Assembly: GCA_015492395.1 (NCBI GenBank)
Contig: WGFD01000101.1
Coordinates: 1 to 5,432 of the forward strand
Length of the DNA: 5,432 nt
From: Deltaproteobacteria bacterium
GTDB taxonomy: Bacteria; Desulfobacterota; GWC2-55-46; S146-70
Direction: 5' to 3'
Shown here: in pieces, positions 2 through 5,432 of the stretch
Layout: each line of letters starts with the position of its first letter
Numbering within the stretch: the first letter of the stretch is position 1
Position numbers and translations under genes: made by a program
Notes under the pieces: generated by a model
Databases searched by the model: none
Told to the model about the DNA's origin: nothing
The model's input: only the letters and a program-made list of their open reading frames with translations

Positions 2-688
2 AGAAAGCTTATGGATGACATGAATATAGACTTGAAAGGATCCGGAGAGGAGGCTGCCAGGCTGGCCAATGAGGGGAAGACCCCCATGTTTATAGCCAAG
101 GGCAAGGCGCTGATGGGTATCATAGCCGTTGCGGATGTCCTGAAAGAGAACAGCGAAAAGGAAATTAAAGAGATTCACAAACTGGGGATAAAAGTGGCTA
201 TGCTCACGGGCGATAACAAGAGAACCGCAGAGGCGATTGCCCGTAAGGTGGGCATCGACCGCGTACTGGCGGAGGTCCTGCCGGAAGACAAGTCCAAGGA
301 GATAAAAAAACTCCAGGATGAAGGGTATAAAGTGGCCATGGTGGGCGACGGGATCAACGACGCCCCCGCGCTTACACAGTCGGATGTTGGTATAGCCATC
401 GGCGCCGGTACGGACGTGGCTATGGAATCGGCAAGGATCGTTCTGATGAAAAGCGACATCCTCGATGTGGTTAAGGCATACAAGCTAAGCGCGGCGACCT
501 TGAGGAACATCAAAGAGAACCTATTCTGGGCATTCGCCTACAATACCACCGGCATCCCGATTGCGGCAGGCGTTCTTTACCCCTTCTTTGGTTTTCTTTT
601 AAGCCCGGTAATAGCAGCGGCGGCAATGGCTCTTTCATCACTCTCGGTGGTTTCCAATGCCTTGAGGTTGAAAAGGGTGAAGTTATAA
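2..688 (+). CDS. copA: Cu+-exporting P1B-type ATPase, C-terminal part (5' end outside window)
   Basis: Partial gene. The frame is open to the left edge and the residues before the first Met (RKL) fit the CopA nucleotide-binding domain, so the ATG at 11 is internal rather than the start. Numbering from that Met: TGDN at 66-69 and GDGINDAP at 112-119 are the P-domain hinge motifs that bind Mg2+ and phosphate. Two hydrophobic segments follow (about 171-198 and 199-217). The first carries Tyr-Asn (177-178) and the second Met-x-x-Ser-Ser (206-210), the known transmembrane Cu+-site signature of CopA (P1B-1), which argues against a Zn/Cd/Pb pump. The phosphorylated DKTGT aspartate, the CPC motif and any N-terminal metal-binding domain lie outside the window. 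The protein sits in the inner membrane and exports cytosolic Cu+ (or Ag+) at the cost of ATP. It is followed by two genes carrying YHS metal-binding domains, which supports a copper locus. No convincing terminator hairpin follows the stop. Confidence 0.95.
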   Translation, partial: RKLMDDMNIDLKGSGEEAARLANEGKTPMFIAKGKALMGIIAVADVLKENSEKEIKEIHKLGIKVAMLTGDNKRTAEAIARKVGIDRVLAEVLPEDKSKEIKKLQDEGYKVAMVGDGINDAPALTQSDVGIAIGAGTDVAMESARIVLMKSDILDVVKAYKLSAATLRNIKENLFWAFAYNTTGIPIAAGVLYPFFGFLLSPVIAAAAMALSSLSVVSNALRLKRVKL

Positions 689-907: not shown

Positions 908-1054
908 ATGAGCAAAGACCCTGTATGCGGTATGGAAGTACATGATGAGCGCTTCTGCAGTACATATAAAGGGATGAAGTATTGCTTCTGCTCATCGAGT
1001 TGCATGAAAAAGTTCAAGGAGAACCCGTCCAGATACGTGGAAGCGGAGAAGTAG
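908..1054 (+). CDS. Small stand-alone YHS/TRASH-type metal-binding protein (48 aa)
   Basis: A complete 48-residue protein made of a single YHS domain. It opens with the family signature DPVCGMEV (residues 4-11), has the aromatic/Cys core KYCFCSSSC (24-32), and ends with a KFKENPSRY segment (35-43) typical of the fold. Cys7, Cys28 and Cys32 give C-x20-C-x3-C, which fits the TRASH spacing (C-x19-22-C-x3-C) associated with metal sensing and trafficking. Cys17 and Cys26 are extra possible ligands. It has no signal peptide or membrane segment, so it is probably cytosolic. The start is fixed by AGGAGG at 893-898. It lies between the Cu+ ATPase and a flavoprotein that begins with the same kind of domain (KDPVC-MEV in both), so a copper-binding or chaperone role is likely but inferred. 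YHS domains are also known fused to heavy-metal ATPases, which fits. The bound metal cannot be read from sequence. Confidence 0.85.
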   Translation: MSKDPVCGMEVHDERFCSTYKGMKYCFCSSSCMKKFKENPSRYVEAEK

Positions 1055-1224: not shown

Positions 1225-2286
1225 ATGCAAAAAGATCCTGTATGCAGAATGGAGGTCAATGAAGACGAGGCTGTTGTTACAGAATATGACAGCAAGGTGA
1301 TCTACTTTTGTTCAGAAGGTTGCAAAGATGCCTTTTTAAAAGAAAAGGCTTCAAAGCCTCCGCGTGCATCCTGTGATCTCATAATAGTAGGCGGCGGACC
1401 AGCCGGGCTGACTGCGGGTGTGTATGCCGCATCGCTTAAGGTAGACGCCTTCCTTATTACCAAAGATCTAGGTGGACAGGCTGTCGACAGCACGAAGATA
1501 AAGAACTATATGGGGTATGACTTTATAACCGGTCCAGAATTGATCGAGAAATTCAAATATCAGTTGATCCATTCACATTATATAGACCACTTGATAAGTG
1601 AGGTGGAAAAGATCGAACCTGCCGAAGGTGGATTCAACGTTACTACGGCGGAACTGAAAAAATATTTTGCTAAGACACTTATAATTGCGACCGGGATGAC
1701 AAGGAGAAGGCTGAATGTAAAAGGCGAAGAGAAATTTCAGCGAAAGGGTATATTTTATGGACATATTCAGGATCTCTCCTTTGTTCATGGCGAAGACGTC
1801 GCAATCATTGGCGGAGGGAACTCGGCGCTGCAGATTGCAGAAAACCTTCATACTGTCGCAAAGAATATTCATATTATATCCGATGCCGCGCTCACTGCGG
1901 ACGCCATGGCGATCGAACGTGTTAGTAAGTTTGAAAACCTGGAAAAGTATGAAGACTATAAGGTGCTTGAATTTATCGGAATGGAAACACTCGATCGTAT
2001 TATTTTAAGGAAAAAGGGAGAAGAGAAGGTATCTGTGATTCCAGTAAAAGGCGCCTTTATAGCCATAGGGCTTCAGCCCAATACATCTTTAATTTCTGGC
2101 ATTCTTGACCTTAATGAAAATGGAGAGGTGATAATAAATCCTGACTGTTCGACTGCTTATCCTGGAATATTTGCTACAGGAGATGTTACAAATGCTTTCG
2201 GAAAACGGATAATTATTGCCTCCGGTGAGGGAGCGAAGGCCGCCATGGCGGCAAGGCAGTATCTGCTGAACTTGTCGAAAGATTGA
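1225..2286 (+). CDS. YHS domain fused to thioredoxin-reductase-like FAD/NAD(P) oxidoreductase lacking CxxC
   Basis: A complete 353-residue, two-part cytosolic protein. Residues 3-40 form a YHS/TRASH-type metal-binding domain (DPVC at 4-7, YFCSEGC at 27-33; Cys7, Cys29, Cys33 give C-x21-C-x3-C). Residues 50-353 (about 304 aa, near thioredoxin reductase length) form a two-dinucleotide-domain flavoprotein: FAD Rossmann motif VGGGPAG (55-61), ATG (155-157), second Rossmann motif IGGGNSA (195-201), and C-terminal FAD motif GIFATGDV (314-321). Where thioredoxin reductase has YCATCDG before the second Rossmann motif, this protein has YGHIQDL (178-184), so both redox cysteines are missing. The HRRxxxR NADPH-binding segment is also absent (IISDAALTAD at 217-226). 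It is therefore unlikely to reduce thioredoxin; ferredoxin/flavodoxin-NAD(P)+ reductase-like or metal-linked electron transfer are alternatives. Position beside copA and a second YHS gene suggests a metal role (inference). The HD-GYP gene follows after 33 bases, probably co-transcribed. Confidence 0.9.
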   Translation: MQKDPVCRMEVNEDEAVVTEYDSKVIYFCSEGCKDAFLKEKASKPPRASCDLIIVGGGPAGLTAGVYAASLKVDAFLITKDLGGQAVDSTKIKNYMGYDFITGPELIEKFKYQLIHSHYIDHLISEVEKIEPAEGGFNVTTAELKKYFAKTLIIATGMTRRRLNVKGEEKFQRKGIFYGHIQDLSFVHGEDVAIIGGGNSALQIAENLHTVAKNIHIISDAALTADAMAIERVSKFENLEKYEDYKVLEFIGMETLDRIILRKKGEEKVSVIPVKGAFIAIGLQPNTSLISGILDLNENGEVIINPDCSTAYPGIFATGDVTNAFGKRIIIASGEGAKAAMAARQYLLNLSKD

Positions 2287-2319: not shown

Positions 2320-3495
2320 ATGGCAATATATGTGCCGCAGTGGCTGGCGATAAGACAAAACAAAGCGTGTATGACTGGTAAGAAAGTTATAAATTCCTTA
2401 AGAATGCTTCACGACCTGTCAAAGACGATAAACTCCACACTTAATATCTATGAGGTTGTGGAAATCGTCATGGAAAAGACATCGAGGCTCATGAGGACGG
2501 ATAAGGTGCTTATACTGCTCCTGGACAGGGAAAAGAGTATTCTGACCGTCCACAGCTCTCTGGGTTTTGAAGAGGGAGAGTTACGTGTAAAACGTTTCCA
2601 TGATGTCGAATCGTTCGACCACTGTATCGTACACAGGGGCACGGTGATAACCCTGAAGGAAATCCTGCCGGAGGAAGAGTACCGGGAGTTGACCGTAGAC
2701 ATGCCTTTTCTTGCAGAAATAGTTCTTGCTCCACTTGAGATTAAGGGAAGGGCTTACGGTCTCCTCGGAATATCAGGCGGCAAACGAAAATTCTCACAGG
2801 TAGAACTGGAGATACTCTGCTCGCTGGCTAGCCAGTCTGCCGTGGCAATGGAAAACGCCAATCTGTACAAGAGATTGCAGGATACCTTTCTGCATACGGC
2901 TGAAGCGCTGGCGGAGGCCGTCAACAGCCGCGATCCATACACAGGAGGACATGCAGGGAGGGTCATGGACTACTCACTCCATTTTGCTGATGCTCTTGAT
3001 TTGTCTGAGGGGAAAAAAGAAGAATTGAAGCTTGCCGCACTCCTTCACGACATAGGCAAAATAGGCGTAGATGATGCCATATTGAGAAAAGGAGGAGTTC
3101 TCACTGAAAGGGAAGAGCTTTCGATGAGAAAACACCCTGAGATAGGGGCAAGGATACTGGGCTTTGTTAAAGAGATGCGGGAGGTGGTGCCTGGCGTGTG
3201 CTACCACCACGAACGGTTCGACGGGACCGGCTACCCGGAAGGACTTAAGGGAGAAGATATCCCGCTTTATGCCAGAATAGTAGCGATAGCCGACGCCTTC
3301 GATGCCCTGACAACCGACAGGCCCTACAGGAAGGCCATAGATAAGGAGGCAGCGATCGAAGAGTTGATTTTGGACGGAGGCGCACACTTCGACCCCTTTC
3401 TCGTAGATGCCTTCTGTAAAAGTGTTATCGGTGAATTCGGTGCAAAGGACTCCAAGCATGACCACTTACAGCGGCCGAGTGGAAAAAGATTATAA
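2320..3495 (+). CDS. GAF-HD-GYP protein, predicted cyclic-di-GMP phosphodiesterase
   Basis: A 391-residue soluble sensor-effector protein. An N-terminal GAF domain spans about residues 28-180 (begins LRMLHDLSKTINSTL, ends with the SQSAVAMENANLY helix). A short linker leads to an HD-GYP domain at about 190-375. Its metal and catalytic residues look intact: His211, HDIGK (243-247), the KHPEIGARIL helix (271-280), HHE (296-298), DGTGYPEGL (301-309), then ARIVAIADAFDAL (318-330) and RPYR (334-337). The family hydrolyses cyclic-di-GMP to pGpG and/or GMP at a two- or three-metal centre; activity here is predicted. The GAF domain presumably senses a ligand or redox state, which is unknown. No membrane segment is seen. 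The start is uncertain: the ATG at 2320 has no well-placed ribosome site, and ATG 2371 (residue 18) or 2404 (residue 29) would still keep the GAF core. It follows the flavoprotein by 33 bases and precedes the methyltransferase by 65, so one operon is plausible. Confidence 0.9.
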   Translation: MAIYVPQWLAIRQNKACMTGKKVINSLRMLHDLSKTINSTLNIYEVVEIVMEKTSRLMRTDKVLILLLDREKSILTVHSSLGFEEGELRVKRFHDVESFDHCIVHRGTVITLKEILPEEEYRELTVDMPFLAEIVLAPLEIKGRAYGLLGISGGKRKFSQVELEILCSLASQSAVAMENANLYKRLQDTFLHTAEALAEAVNSRDPYTGGHAGRVMDYSLHFADALDLSEGKKEELKLAALLHDIGKIGVDDAILRKGGVLTEREELSMRKHPEIGARILGFVKEMREVVPGVCYHHERFDGTGYPEGLKGEDIPLYARIVAIADAFDALTTDRPYRKAIDKEAAIEELILDGGAHFDPFLVDAFCKSVIGEFGAKDSKHDHLQRPSGKRL

Positions 3496-3560: not shown

Positions 3561-4220
3561 ATGGAAAGCGGCCAACCAATATTAGGAGGCACATGGGCTA
3601 TTACCATAATTATGGTGGTAATAGCCTCGTGGGTGGTTTTTAAGTATCTGGTCCCGAAGGGTTTTAAGGAGTGGGGGAATGTGGGGCTGATCCAGGCTTT
3701 TATTATTGCACTCTATGCCGAGATGTATGGTTTTCCTCTGACCATCTATCTCCTGACAACATTTTTGGGATTCGATATCCCATGGCTCCATGTAAACGGC
3801 CATCTGTGGGCGTCACTCTTTGGAGGAGGCACAGGGATGGCCATGCTGGAGATGATTGTGGGGTATGCCTTCGTTTTCCTCGGCCTCTCATTGATTGCCA
3901 GAGGGTGGAAGCAGATTTATGCGGCCAGAAAAGAGGAAAGGCTTGTGACAGACGGCATTTACGGGTATATAAGGCATCCCCAGTATACGGGCATATTTCT
4001 GGCTATCTTCGGACAGTTAATCCACTGGCCTACCATTCCGACCCTGGTATTGTTCCCGGCAATCTTCGTTGCCTACTACACCCTTGCCAGAAAAGAGGAG
4101 AAGATCATGATTGAAAGGTTTGGAGATGAATACAGAGACTATGTGAAGAGGGTGCCCATGTTTGTGCCGAAATGGGAGGAAAGCATAGAGGCTATATTTA
4201 AAAGAGAGAATTCAGCATAA
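3561..4220 (+). CDS. Integral membrane methyltransferase, isoprenylcysteine carboxyl methyltransferase (ICMT/CzcN-like) family
   Basis: A complete 219-residue inner-membrane protein. Hydrophobic segments lie at about 11-31, 41-70 (probably two passes), 93-113 and 143-176 (probably a hairpin). The conserved C-terminal block of the ICMT/PEMT-type methyltransferases is present: LVTDGIYGYIRHPQYTG (128-144) with the RHP triplet at 138-140, the glutamates after LARKEEK (175-181), and RFGDEYRDYVKRVPMFVPKW (186-205), which closes the S-adenosylmethionine site in the family. Bacterial members methylate lipids or small or unknown substrates; true isoprenylcysteine processing is not expected here. CzcN and NccN of Cd/Zn/Co/Ni resistance operons belong to this family, so a neighbour of a copper ATPase fits a metal-resistance setting, although substrate and role are unproven. 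All nine arginines use AGA or AGG, matching the upstream genes and unlike the gene downstream. A good ribosome site lies just upstream. Confidence 0.88.
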   Translation: MESGQPILGGTWAITIIMVVIASWVVFKYLVPKGFKEWGNVGLIQAFIIALYAEMYGFPLTIYLLTTFLGFDIPWLHVNGHLWASLFGGGTGMAMLEMIVGYAFVFLGLSLIARGWKQIYAARKEERLVTDGIYGYIRHPQYTGIFLAIFGQLIHWPTIPTLVLFPAIFVAYYTLARKEEKIMIERFGDEYRDYVKRVPMFVPKWEESIEAIFKRENSA

Positions 4221-4443
4221 GGGTTATAAAGAGAGATATCCAATTGAGTTCCGGTATTTATATGAATCTTGCCCTGCCGGAGGAGACCACGGCCTTCATG
4301 AGAGATCTTCAAGCAAGGGATGGAGAAGGTGTTTGCGCCACTCTATAGGCGCCGAGCTTTCCGCCATTCAGTGGTTGAAAAAAGTCATGGGCAGTGAAAT
4401 CTGCAAATGTATGGGGGCGTCTAAATCTCAGCATACTGCTGCG
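4221..4443 (+). other. Gap between the methyltransferase and the PLD-family gene; probable compositional boundary
   Basis: There are 223 bases with no convincing gene and no terminator hairpin. Two short frames could be remnants or chance: 4262-4345 (28 codons, begins MNLALPEETTAF) and 4320-4397 (25 codons, begins MEKVFAPLYRRR). The frame of the downstream gene is free of stops from 4147 onward and contains ATGs at 4387 and 4411, plus a TTG at 4333 that lies 7 bases after GGAG, so that gene might start earlier than annotated. Arginine codon use changes across this gap. Confidence 0.45.
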
Positions 4444-5432
4444 ATGGAAACGGAAGAATCTGCTTGTGCGCCTCATTTAACCGAGGGACGCGAGCCTTTC
4501 ATCCTGTTCACCGAGGGGGATGTGCTCTATAATGAGATGTTGTCGTCTATTGCGTCGTCGCAACGCAGCATCAGACTGGAGAGTTTCATCTTCGCAGATG
4601 ACGAGGTGGGATGGCGTTTTGCTAAAGCTCTGGCCGAAAGTGTTCGAGCAGGGGTTGAGGTCAACCTGCTTATCGATGCCGCCGGTTCTCTCTTCTGGGG
4701 TTCCCGCTCCATGGAAAGGTATCTGCATGAACACGGCGCGCATATACGATGGTTCCATCGTTGGAACTGGCGTGTTCCCATGCGTTATAACAGGCGCGAC
4801 CATCGCAAGCTGCTGGTGGTGGATGAAGAACAGCTCTTTCTGGGTGGGTTTAACATTCACAGAAAAAGCTCCCGTGCCATATTTGGGGAGAGGCGCTGGC
4901 GCGATACCCATGTGCGCATCTCAGGTGGCCTTGCTGTCGAGGCTGCGCGCATGTTTGATGACTTTTGGGATGGGAAGCGTGATTGGCTGTTGAAAAAAGC
5001 TCCGGCTGTCAGCGCTCTGGTGCCAAACCATACTCGTGCTTGCCGGCGGACCCTGCACTGCCTTTATGTGGACAGTTTCCGTAGAGCCGTATCATCGGTA
5101 TATCTTACAACCCCCTATTTTGTGCCGGATCATCGCACACAGCGTGAGCTAAGTGATGCCGCAGGGCGCGGTGTTGATGTGCGCTTGTTGGTGCCGCAAA
5201 AGAGCGATGTATGGCTGGCCAGACCGGCCGCGCAGGCTGCCTACGCTAATTTGTTGAAGGCAGGCGTGCGTATCTATGAATATCTTCCCAGGATGTTGCA
5301 TGCCAAAACGGCCGTGGTTGACGGTAAGTGGGCGACATTAGGAACTGCGAACCTGGATTACCGCAGTTTTTTTGTTAACTATGAGCTGAACCTGGTGACA
5401 CGGGACAGGGATATTTGCAGCGGGCTTAATGC
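4444..5432 (+). CDS. PLD-family cardiolipin synthase (ClsB-like), 3' end outside window
   Basis: Partial gene, at least 329 codons and still open at the right edge; ClsB-type proteins are usually about 390-410 aa, so roughly 60-80 residues are probably missing. Both phospholipase D HKD motifs are present: HRKLLVVD (120-127, followed by GGFNIH) and HAKTAVVD (286-293, followed by GTANLDYRS and NYELN). The LESFIFADDEVG and TTPYFVPD segments are also typical of the cardiolipin synthase branch. These enzymes make cardiolipin by phosphatidyl transfer through a covalent phosphohistidine, usually at the inner membrane. No N-terminal membrane helix is seen, which favours ClsB-like over ClsA-like. The start is uncertain: ATG 4444 leaves about 20 residues before the conserved core but has no clear ribosome site; ATG 4411 or 4387, or TTG 4333 with a nearby GGAG, are alternatives. 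28 of 37 arginines use CGN codons, unlike the upstream genes, which suggests separate ancestry or transfer. Confidence 0.9.
   Translation, partial: METEESACAPHLTEGREPFILFTEGDVLYNEMLSSIASSQRSIRLESFIFADDEVGWRFAKALAESVRAGVEVNLLIDAAGSLFWGSRSMERYLHEHGAHIRWFHRWNWRVPMRYNRRDHRKLLVVDEEQLFLGGFNIHRKSSRAIFGERRWRDTHVRISGGLAVEAARMFDDFWDGKRDWLLKKAPAVSALVPNHTRACRRTLHCLYVDSFRRAVSSVYLTTPYFVPDHRTQRELSDAAGRGVDVRLLVPQKSDVWLARPAAQAAYANLLKAGVRIYEYLPRMLHAKTAVVDGKWATLGTANLDYRSFFVNYELNLVTRDRDICSGLN

What the first reader, a model, noticed from the sequence alone, without database searches (positions are those of the whole stretch)
1225..2286. YHS metal-binding domain fused to a thioredoxin-reductase-like flavoprotein with no redox cysteines
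Seen: a TRASH-spaced YHS domain (C7-x21-C29-x3-C33) precedes a full FAD/NAD(P) fold in which the YCATCDG active site is replaced by YGHIQDL (residues 178-184). Known: mercuric reductase joins a metal-binding domain to a flavoprotein disulfide reductase. Inferred: this may be a different solution in which metal held by the YHS domain, rather than a disulfide, exchanges electrons with FAD, or the YHS domain senses metal and gates the reductase. The position right after a Cu+ ATPase and a second YHS protein strengthens the case.
Basis: partly seen in the sequence, partly recalled or inferred. Interest (0 to 1): 0.7.

Follow-up and report, generated by a model that had tools for sequence, protein, structure and literature searches.

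The report
Copper-linked flavin enzyme lacking its disulfide
This gene joins a YHS domain, a small module predicted to hold copper, to a thioredoxin-reductase-like flavin enzyme that lacks the usual working cysteine pair, and because relatives often sit next to copper pumps it likely hands electrons from NADH straight to copper, which would be a new way for bacteria to process copper before pumping it out.

Summary
Window 1225-2286 encodes 353 residues: a YHS domain fused to a TrxR/AhpF-type FAD/NAD fold in which YCxxCD is replaced by YGHIQDL. It is not a one-off: 0 of 344 YHS-fused relatives examined have CxxC at this site, while 13 of 13 non-YHS TrxR homologues do. A tree of the flavin domain alone puts all 344 in one clade. 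They share H122 and R328 (344 of 344); R328 replaces the Gln found in all 13 controls and in AhpF. D4, C7, C29 and C33, matching the Asp + 3 Cys proposed as copper ligands in a YHS copper sensor, are nearly invariant.

A copper-type P1B ATPase lies beside the main subfamily in 7 of 13 loci (window included), against 1 of 12 control loci; cupredoxin, CsoR, HMA and further YHS proteins also occur there. A second, Deferrisoma-type subfamily shows no clear copper linkage (0 of 7).

The best explanation, inferred and untested, is an NADH-dependent metallo-flavoprotein that reduces YHS-bound copper and supplies Cu(I) to CopA; metal gating of another reaction is the main rival. No description of this fusion was found in the papers searched. 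New variant of a known kind.

The parts
1225..2286 (+). YHS-flavoprotein gene, 353 aa, the subject of the finding
   Evidence: 344-member family
1231..1344 (+). YHS domain (residues 3-40); candidate metal ligands D4 (1234-1236), C7 (1243-1245), C29 (1309-1311), C33 (1321-1323)
   Evidence: PF04945 39.1 bits; D4, C7, C29, C33 invariant in 98 chosen sequences; in all 344, where a residue is present: D4 316 of 317, C7 317 of 317, C29 and C33 343 of 343
1369..2283 (+). TrxR/AhpF-type FAD and NAD(P) fold (residues 49-353)
1756..1776 (+). YGHIQDL (residues 178-184), at the position of the TrxR active site YCxxCDG
   Evidence: alignment to AhpF; CxxC 0 of 344 YHS-fused, 13 of 13 non-YHS
1588..1590 (+). 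H122, family-specific invariant residue
   Evidence: 344 of 344 YHS-fused, 0 of 13 controls
2206..2208 (+). R328, replaces the Gln of TrxR/AhpF in the segment that (recalled from TrxR structures) contacts the flavin
   Evidence: R 344 of 344 versus Q 13 of 13; Q in AhpF (alignment)
2146..2148 (+). C308, conserved cysteine shared with AhpF, not specific to the family
   Evidence: C in 339 of 344 YHS-fused and 9 of 13 controls; AhpF KCET
908..1054 (+). stand-alone YHS protein, 48 aa
   Evidence: PF04945 58.7 bits; also found in the genome-wide YHS search
2..688 (+). C-terminal third of a copper-type P1B ATPase (CopA), cut by the contig end
   Evidence: NCBIfam PRK10671 CopA 278.6 bits and TIGR01511 246.1 bits, below the full-length cut-offs, as expected for a fragment; 66% identical to a relative's CopA
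2320..3495 (+). GAF + HD-type protein, also beside CopA and the YHS flavoprotein in L033 and L056
   Evidence: synteny
3561..4220 (+). ICMT/PEMT-like membrane methyltransferase, also in the copper clusters of L054 and L056
   Evidence: (70% and 67% identity)

Best explanation
The gene encodes a YHS domain fused to a thioredoxin-reductase/AhpF-type flavin fold without the CxxC disulfide, and it would likely work as an NADH-dependent oxidoreductase whose electron acceptor is copper held by the YHS domain, supplying Cu(I) to the neighbouring CopA exporter. Shown by calls: the fusion, the absence of CxxC throughout the 344 relatives examined, the single clade on the flavin-domain tree, the conserved D4/C7/C29/C33, H122 and R328, and the enrichment of copper-type ATPases next to the main subfamily. 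Inferred: (1) NADH reduces FAD as in AhpF, since the NAD-binding loop lacks the HRRxxxR NADPH signature (recalled); (2) the protein may rest in the flavin-reducing arrangement, because its predicted model matches an FR structure better than the FO structure of the same enzyme; (3) with no disulfide to carry electrons away, R328 near the flavin pyrimidine edge would favour one-electron steps (general flavin chemistry, recalled); (4) the electron goes to Cu(II) in the YHS site and Cu(I) passes to YHS proteins or YHS-CopA, then out. Steps 3 and 4 are untested.
For: CxxC 0 of 344 YHS-fused sequences versus 13 of 13 non-YHS homologues; in 395 genomes of the window's phylum, the 12 YHS-fused hits all lack CxxC and the 11 non-YHS hits all keep it, Fisher p 7e-7. 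YHS-fused clade monophyletic on flavin-domain columns only: 254 of 254 tips, support 0.92; 344 of 344, 0.81. H122 and R328 344 of 344, absent in 13 of 13 controls. D4, C7, C29, C33 invariant in 98 chosen sequences and nearly so in all 344 (one D4K), matching the Asp + 3 Cys proposed as Cu ligands in the copper-activated M. phlei adenylyl cyclase (PMC4626032, part 1 of 4 read; that D4 is the same Asp is my reading). Copper-type P1B ATPase in 7 of 13 main-subfamily loci, window included, versus 1 of 12 control loci, one-sided p 0.02 (the 12 controls all carry YCxxCD); the six full-length ATPases exceed the copper-ATPase cut-off TIGR01511, 489-651 versus 397 bits. CsoR-family repressor, HMA, cupredoxin, DUF302 and further YHS proteins in the same clusters. 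Linkage seen in the window's class and in L007 (Kiritimatiellota) and L008. Model agrees with FR more than FO TrxR: L. lactis rmsd 3.0 versus 6.2 Angstrom.
Against: No metal binding, flavin content or activity is known to me for any member. 6 of 13 main-subfamily loci show no P1B ATPase (some contigs are short), and the second subfamily shows none clearly (0 of 7; one 28%-identical P-type hit in L041). One neighbour ATPase (L036) is of the calcium type. Five of the seven linked loci, the window's among them, come from one class, so the loci are not independent. YHS-flavin proximity could not be measured; pTM is 0.71, and no CxxC control was modelled for the FR/FO comparison. Many hosts are probably anaerobes (inference), where cytosolic copper should already be Cu(I). 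YHS is read as a sensor in the one enzyme whose study I saw (PMC4626032).
Confidence: 0.38

Rival explanations
1. Metal-gated oxidoreductase: the YHS domain senses copper and switches an NADH-dependent flavin enzyme whose real acceptor is something else (oxygen, a quinone, a small electron carrier or a disulfide elsewhere).
For: In the M. phlei adenylyl cyclase a YHS domain makes the enzyme copper-activated (PMC4626032). YHS is attached to unrelated enzymes, for example a glucan phosphorylase in L056, as expected of a regulatory module. Copper linkage is equally explained.
Against: It leaves the loss of CxxC and the R328/H122 changes, common to 344 of 344 members, without a named acceptor.
Confidence: 0.27
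2. Relocated thiol relay: the YHS cysteines act as the redox disulfide that the flavin domain lost, as the N-terminal domain does in AhpF, and pass electrons to a protein disulfide.
For: C21 and C43 occur together: both in 96 of 120 close relatives, one only in 9, neither in 15; 104/12/5/133 of 254. In the second subfamily C21 is kept in 48 of 54 and a cysteine two residues after the conserved Phe of the helix in 47 of 52, so a shifted pair exists there too. The predicted hairpin 17-28 and helix 31-41 could bring them together. AhpF is the closest solved relative.
Against: The window protein has Y21/S43, and C21 is present in only 5 of 122 of the second search set, so the pair is dispensable. 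Without CxxC beside the flavin the relay lacks its usual first step. C7/C29/C33 look like metal ligands.
Confidence: 0.14
3. Ferredoxin/flavodoxin-type reductase: a TrxR-type FNR-like enzyme with a YHS domain that only gives structure or binds zinc.
For: TrxR-type FNRs share the fold, and (recalled) also lack CxxC; FNR structures are among the matches.
Against: FNRs score far below AhpF/TrxR (best FNR E 3e-24 versus 2.7e-45); the C-terminal extension that stacks on the flavin in BsFNR (PMC10526003, passages) is absent, since the last predicted helix ends at residue 352 of 353; it does not explain the copper neighbours.
Confidence: 0.13
4. Non-catalytic or decayed TrxR paralogue kept for a structural role.
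For: The canonical redox cysteines are gone.
Against: FAD and NAD glycine motifs and many flavin-fold residues are invariant over 98 chosen sequences down to 38% identity, and source names span several phyla: strong constraint, not decay.
Confidence: 0.05

Closest known systems
AhpF (alkyl hydroperoxide reductase subunit F, TIGR03140; 1hyu, 4o5q)
   Same: Closest solved relative by sequence; same FAD/NAD core, an NAD loop that also lacks the NADPH arginines, C308 position, and an N-terminal accessory domain fused to a TrxR-like core.
   Different: No CxxC in the core, no thioredoxin-like N-terminal domain; 217 bits of a 503-bit cut-off; Arg in place of Gln at 328.
Low-Mr thioredoxin reductase (TIGR01292)
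   Different: No CxxC, YHS domain added; 234 bits of a 343-bit cut-off.
Mercuric reductase MerA (TIGR02053)
   Same: A metal-binding N-terminal domain fused to a pyridine-nucleotide flavoprotein; the design is analogous.
   Different: MerA uses an HMA (NmerA) domain and cysteine pairs (recalled); this protein scores 46 of 454 bits and has neither.
Mycobacterium phlei adenylyl cyclase YHS domain (PMC4626032)
   Same: YHS fused to an enzyme; Asp + 3 Cys proposed to bind Cu; copper activates the enzyme.
   Different: Different catalytic domain; there YHS is a sensor at the C-terminus.
Archaeoglobus fulgidus CopZ and Rhodobacter CcoG, copper reductases named in the review PMC7558416 (section 12 read)
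   Same: Cu(II) reduction feeding Cu(I) to chaperones and P1B ATPases, the role proposed here; CopZ also fuses a redox domain to a copper-binding domain.
   Different: Both use iron-sulfur clusters; CcoG is membrane-bound. This protein has FAD/NAD motifs, and no Fe-S family was matched. A zf_CopZ gene with a weak [2Fe-2S] match lies in the L008 copper cluster.
TrxR-type ferredoxin-NADP reductases (BsFNR, FNR1 of B. cereus)
   Same: TrxR fold, without CxxC (recalled).
   Different: Weaker sequence match, no C-terminal extension here, no YHS there.

Membership tests
YHS domain (PF04945) | Score above the curated Pfam cut-off | tested here: met
   39.1 bits, cut-off 30.3
YHS domain (PF04945) | Conserved Asp and three Cys proposed as metal ligands | tested here: met
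   D4, C7, C29, C33 present and invariant in 98 chosen sequences; ligand proposal from PMC4626032; that D4 is the Asp meant there is my reading
YHS domain (PF04945) | Binds a transition metal | not testable with these tools
   needs purified protein
Thioredoxin reductase | CxxC redox disulfide in the NAD domain | tested here: not met
   YGHIQDL; 0 of 344 family members have CxxC
Thioredoxin reductase | Score above TIGR01292 cut-off | tested here: not met
   233.8 versus 343.45 bits
AhpF | Thioredoxin-like N-terminal domain plus CxxC in the core | tested here: not met
   N-terminus is YHS; no CxxC; 217.3 versus 502.9 bits
Mercuric reductase MerA | Score above TIGR02053 cut-off; redox cysteine pair | tested here: not met
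   46.4 versus 454.45 bits; no cysteine pair in the flavin domain
[quoted passage not shown]
   predicted last helix ends at residue 352 of 353; feature described for BsFNR in PMC10526003 passages
TrxR-type FNR | Reduces ferredoxin or flavodoxin | not testable with these tools
   needs assay
Cupric reductase (functional class) | Reduces Cu(II) to Cu(I) | not testable with these tools
   needs assay; only genomic linkage to copper-type ATPases was tested
Copper-efflux gene cluster member | Neighbourhood with P1B Cu ATPase more often than control TrxR genes | tested here: met
   main subfamily 7 of 13 (window included) versus 1 of 12, one-sided p 0.02; second subfamily 0 of 7

The most novel reading that the evidence does not exclude
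A widespread, undescribed class of cytosolic copper-reducing flavoenzymes: copper docked in a fused YHS domain has replaced the disulfide as the electron acceptor of a thioredoxin-reductase-type FAD, so that NADH reduces Cu(II) to Cu(I) one electron at a time for export by CopA.
Probability: 0.33. Interest if true: 0.82.

Novelty: new variant of a known kind. Interest (0 to 1): 0.6.

Why it matters
[quoted passage not shown] A NADH-driven flavoenzyme with its own copper-binding domain, encoded beside CopA, would give bacteria a dedicated soluble route and make the question directly testable. It would also show that the thioredoxin-reductase fold can trade its disulfide for a metal site. Where sources name these proteins, the names include AhpF, thioredoxin-disulfide reductase and NADH dehydrogenase; the first two are unlikely without CxxC. 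A cultured host of the second subfamily exists, Deferrisoma camini.

Tried and rejected
One-off loss of the active site: rejected, 0 of 344 YHS-fused sequences carry CxxC there. Mercury system: no MerA match above cut-off; L034 has MerR, HMA and thioredoxin-like genes 2.7-5 kb away, left as a lead. C308 as a new redox site: it is shared with AhpF and 9 of 13 controls, so not specific. C21/C43 as the general acceptor: absent from the window protein, and C21 in 5 of 122 of the second search set. Plasmid spread: no match among 72,556 plasmid records at E 1e-50. Solved structure of a related YHS by sequence: none at E up to 10; residues 1-44 were barely tested by the fold comparison. Promoter-like and terminator-like sites around the gene: 1 and 2 found, 3.3 and 1.2 expected, no use. 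Distance from C29/C33 to FAD: not possible, no coordinates were laid in the Python box. The named genome-contig scan gave only 6 loci; of these L009 and L010 are CxxC homologues. Samples in the phyla of three seed genomes found only the seed itself: 1 of 44, 1 of 124 and 1 of 387 genomes; class of G294 1 of 17. Thus the genome sample outside the window's phylum is thin. The first structure job was poorer (pTM 0.66) and was not used.

Rows dropped: in the context count L005 was left out because it is the reverse complement of L057; only L057 counted. L002, a truncated TrxR with CxxC at a contig end in the window's own genome, was not in the 13 sequence controls. The 12 context controls are the 11 non-YHS loci plus L071, all with YCxxCD. 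The 344 sequences include at least two genes twice (L012 and P0096; L016 and P0243, 100% identical) and were listed by similarity to YHS-fused queries, best 120 per search of 7645-7967 hits, so they cannot by themselves show how often the flavin domain occurs without YHS; the genome sample is the less biased test, though its query also carried the YHS domain and only 5 candidates a genome were scored.

Full report
OBSERVATION. The window is a whole 5432-base contig (G000:C101; contig length) of a 2.09-Mb, 93%-complete genome. ORF 1225-2286 has 353 residues. Pfam assigns YHS to residues 3-40 and Pyr_redox_2 to 51-331. Against the solved structures the flavin part is closest to AhpF (1hyu, E 2.7e-45), then thioredoxin reductases; the printed alignment puts YGHIQDL opposite the AhpF YCPHCDG site.

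SURROUNDINGS. Upstream are the C-terminal third of a copper-type P1B ATPase, cut by the contig end (2-688; CopA model best), and a 48-aa YHS-only protein (908-1054, 58.7 bits). Downstream are a GAF-HD protein, an ICMT/PEMT-like membrane methyltransferase and a cardiolipin-synthase-like protein. The genome search found three YHS domains, two of them on this contig, and a separate TrxR fragment with YCATCDG (L002).

THE FAMILY. Three protein searches, each listing its best 120 hits, gave 329 proteins (window protein included), which with three translated loci make 332; adding 12 genome loci gives 344 YHS-fused sequences. None has CxxC at the active-site position (0 of 344). Main-subfamily motifs are YGNIQD, YSSVQD and similar; residue 182 is Q in 263 and H in 21 of 290. 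The second subfamily (54 sequences, Deferrisoma-type) has EFHALLA, EYHDLLA or similar. C29 and C33 are present in 343 of 344; the exception is a 279-aa fragment. Source names on the listed hits include Nitrospirae, Thermodesulfovibrionia, Planctomycetota, Omnitrophota, Caldiserica, Chlorobi, Bacteroidales, Eisenbacteria and Deferrisoma. Distribution is patchy: 7 of 63 genomes in the window's class, and 12 YHS-fused hits in 395 genomes of its phylum.

CONTROL. The 395-genome search returned 23 matches at E 1e-60 or better: 12 with YHS, none with CxxC; 11 without YHS, all with CxxC (Fisher p 7e-7). Adding L009 and L010 gives 13 sequence controls, 13 of 13 with CxxC. A tree from flavin-domain columns only, rooted on L009/L010, places all YHS-fused sequences in one clade (254 of 254 tips, support 0.92; 344 of 344, 0.81). 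The monophyly of the main subfamily itself is weakly supported (0.43). Residues that separate the two groups: H122 (344 of 344 versus 0 of 13), R328 (344 of 344 versus Q in 13 of 13), D88 (339 of 344 versus 1 of 13), M158 (339 of 344 versus 0 of 13), Q203 (340 of 344 versus 0 of 13). So the fusion came with a coordinated rebuilding of the flavin domain, not only the loss of two cysteines.

METAL SITE. D4, C7, C29 and C33 are invariant in the 98 sequences chosen for alignment A2. Over all 344, where a residue is present, D4 is kept in 316 of 317 (one Lys), C7 in 317 of 317 and C29 and C33 in 343 of 343. In the M. phlei adenylyl cyclase, 1-10 uM Cu2+ activates the full-length enzyme but not the domain without YHS, and one Asp and three Cys were proposed as ligands (PMC4626032; part 1 of 4 read: abstract, introduction, part of the methods). 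Two further cysteines, C21 and C43, go together: both in 96, one in 9, neither in 15 of 120; 104, 17 and 133 of 254, with 16 joint changes by parsimony. Seven of those 17 are second-subfamily loci, which carry a cysteine one helix turn earlier (47 of 52 second-subfamily sequences). The pair may form a disulfide or a second soft-metal site. The window protein lacks both, so the pair is not needed for the common function.

CONTEXT. Blast of cluster proteins against 13 main-subfamily loci (window included), 7 second-subfamily loci and 12 CxxC control loci (controls' motif checked) found a P1B ATPase in 7 of 13 (W, L007, L008, L033, L054, L055, L056), 0 of 7 and 1 of 12 (L067). I did not count the calcium-type ATPase of L036, a 28%-identical P-type hit in L041, or the YHS self-hits in L034 and L037. 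One-sided Fisher p is 0.02 against controls; loci of one class are not independent, and contig lengths differ (3.7-17.2 kb). The six full-length ATPases score 489-651 bits against the copper-ATPase cut-off of 397. L055 also has a CsoR-family repressor (PF02583), an HMA protein and a DsbD-like membrane protein; L054 has a cupredoxin directly upstream, DUF302 and a YHS membrane protein; L056 has cupredoxin, CopA, the methyltransferase and the GAF-HD gene; L007 and L033 have CopA with its own YHS domain; L008 has CopA and a zf_CopZ protein with a weak [2Fe-2S] match.

MECHANISM. The window's NAD loop lacks the HRRxxxR NADPH signature (recalled), so NADH is the likely donor in the main subfamily; the second subfamily has basic residues there (TRSYRAD) and could differ. 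Without CxxC the ordinary TrxR cycle cannot run. With R328 where TrxR has a flavin-contacting Gln (contact recalled), and a metal domain fused to the core and encoded next to Cu(I) exporters, direct reduction of YHS-bound copper is my first choice (0.38), metal-gated activity second (0.27), a YHS thiol relay third (0.14).

NOVELTY. Searches for the YHS domain with thioredoxin reductase, copper, FAD-dependent and NADH, for TRASH domain with metal, and for bacterial NADH cupric reductase flavoproteins gave no description of this fusion in their listings. Beyond listings I saw part 1 of PMC4626032, passages of PMC3466566, PMC7558416, PMC8261052 and PMC10526003 and section 12 of PMC7558416. The library lacks most subscription journals. 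It is a new variant of the TrxR/AhpF-like flavoproteins, and by the tests listed not a member of TrxR, AhpF or MerA; for TrxR-type FNR one structural feature was not met on the model.

Noticed in passing
L056:2141-4063 (-): A YHS domain fused to the N-terminus of a glucan-phosphorylase-like protein (PF00343), inside the same copper gene cluster.
   Followed up: no
window 3561-4220; L054:213-869; L056:7665-8315: An ICMT/PEMT-like membrane methyltransferase, with a weak match to methanethiol S-methyltransferase MddA, recurs in three of the copper clusters (67-70% identity to the window's).
   Followed up: partly
window 2320-3495; L033:6308-7390; L056:8328-9200: A GAF-HD protein, best NCBIfam hit NosR-family c-di-GMP phosphodiesterase below cut-off, keeps company with CopA and the YHS flavoprotein.
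   Followed up: partly
L015-L021 and the 54 second-subfamily sequences: A Deferrisoma-type subfamily with EFHALLA in place of CxxC, mostly Lys in place of YHS Met9 and basic residues in the NAD loop, without clear copper linkage; its substrate may differ.
   Followed up: partly
YHS residues C21 and C43 of most close relatives: A strongly co-occurring second cysteine pair in the YHS domain, absent from the window protein; possible disulfide or second metal site.
   Followed up: partly
L006:4478-4861, L054:1615-2142, L042:10941-11279: DUF302 genes (in L042 only a blast match) near the YHS flavoprotein in three loci.
   Followed up: no
L008:6589-7059 and 7104-7583: A CopZ-type zinc-domain protein with a weak BFD [2Fe-2S] match followed by a pyridine-nucleotide flavoprotein reading frame (159 aa, near the contig end) in the same cluster as CopA and the YHS flavoprotein.
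   Followed up: no
window 4333-5430: A cardiolipin-synthase-like protein (PLD-like domains), cut by the contig end; no visible link to the copper genes.
   Followed up: no
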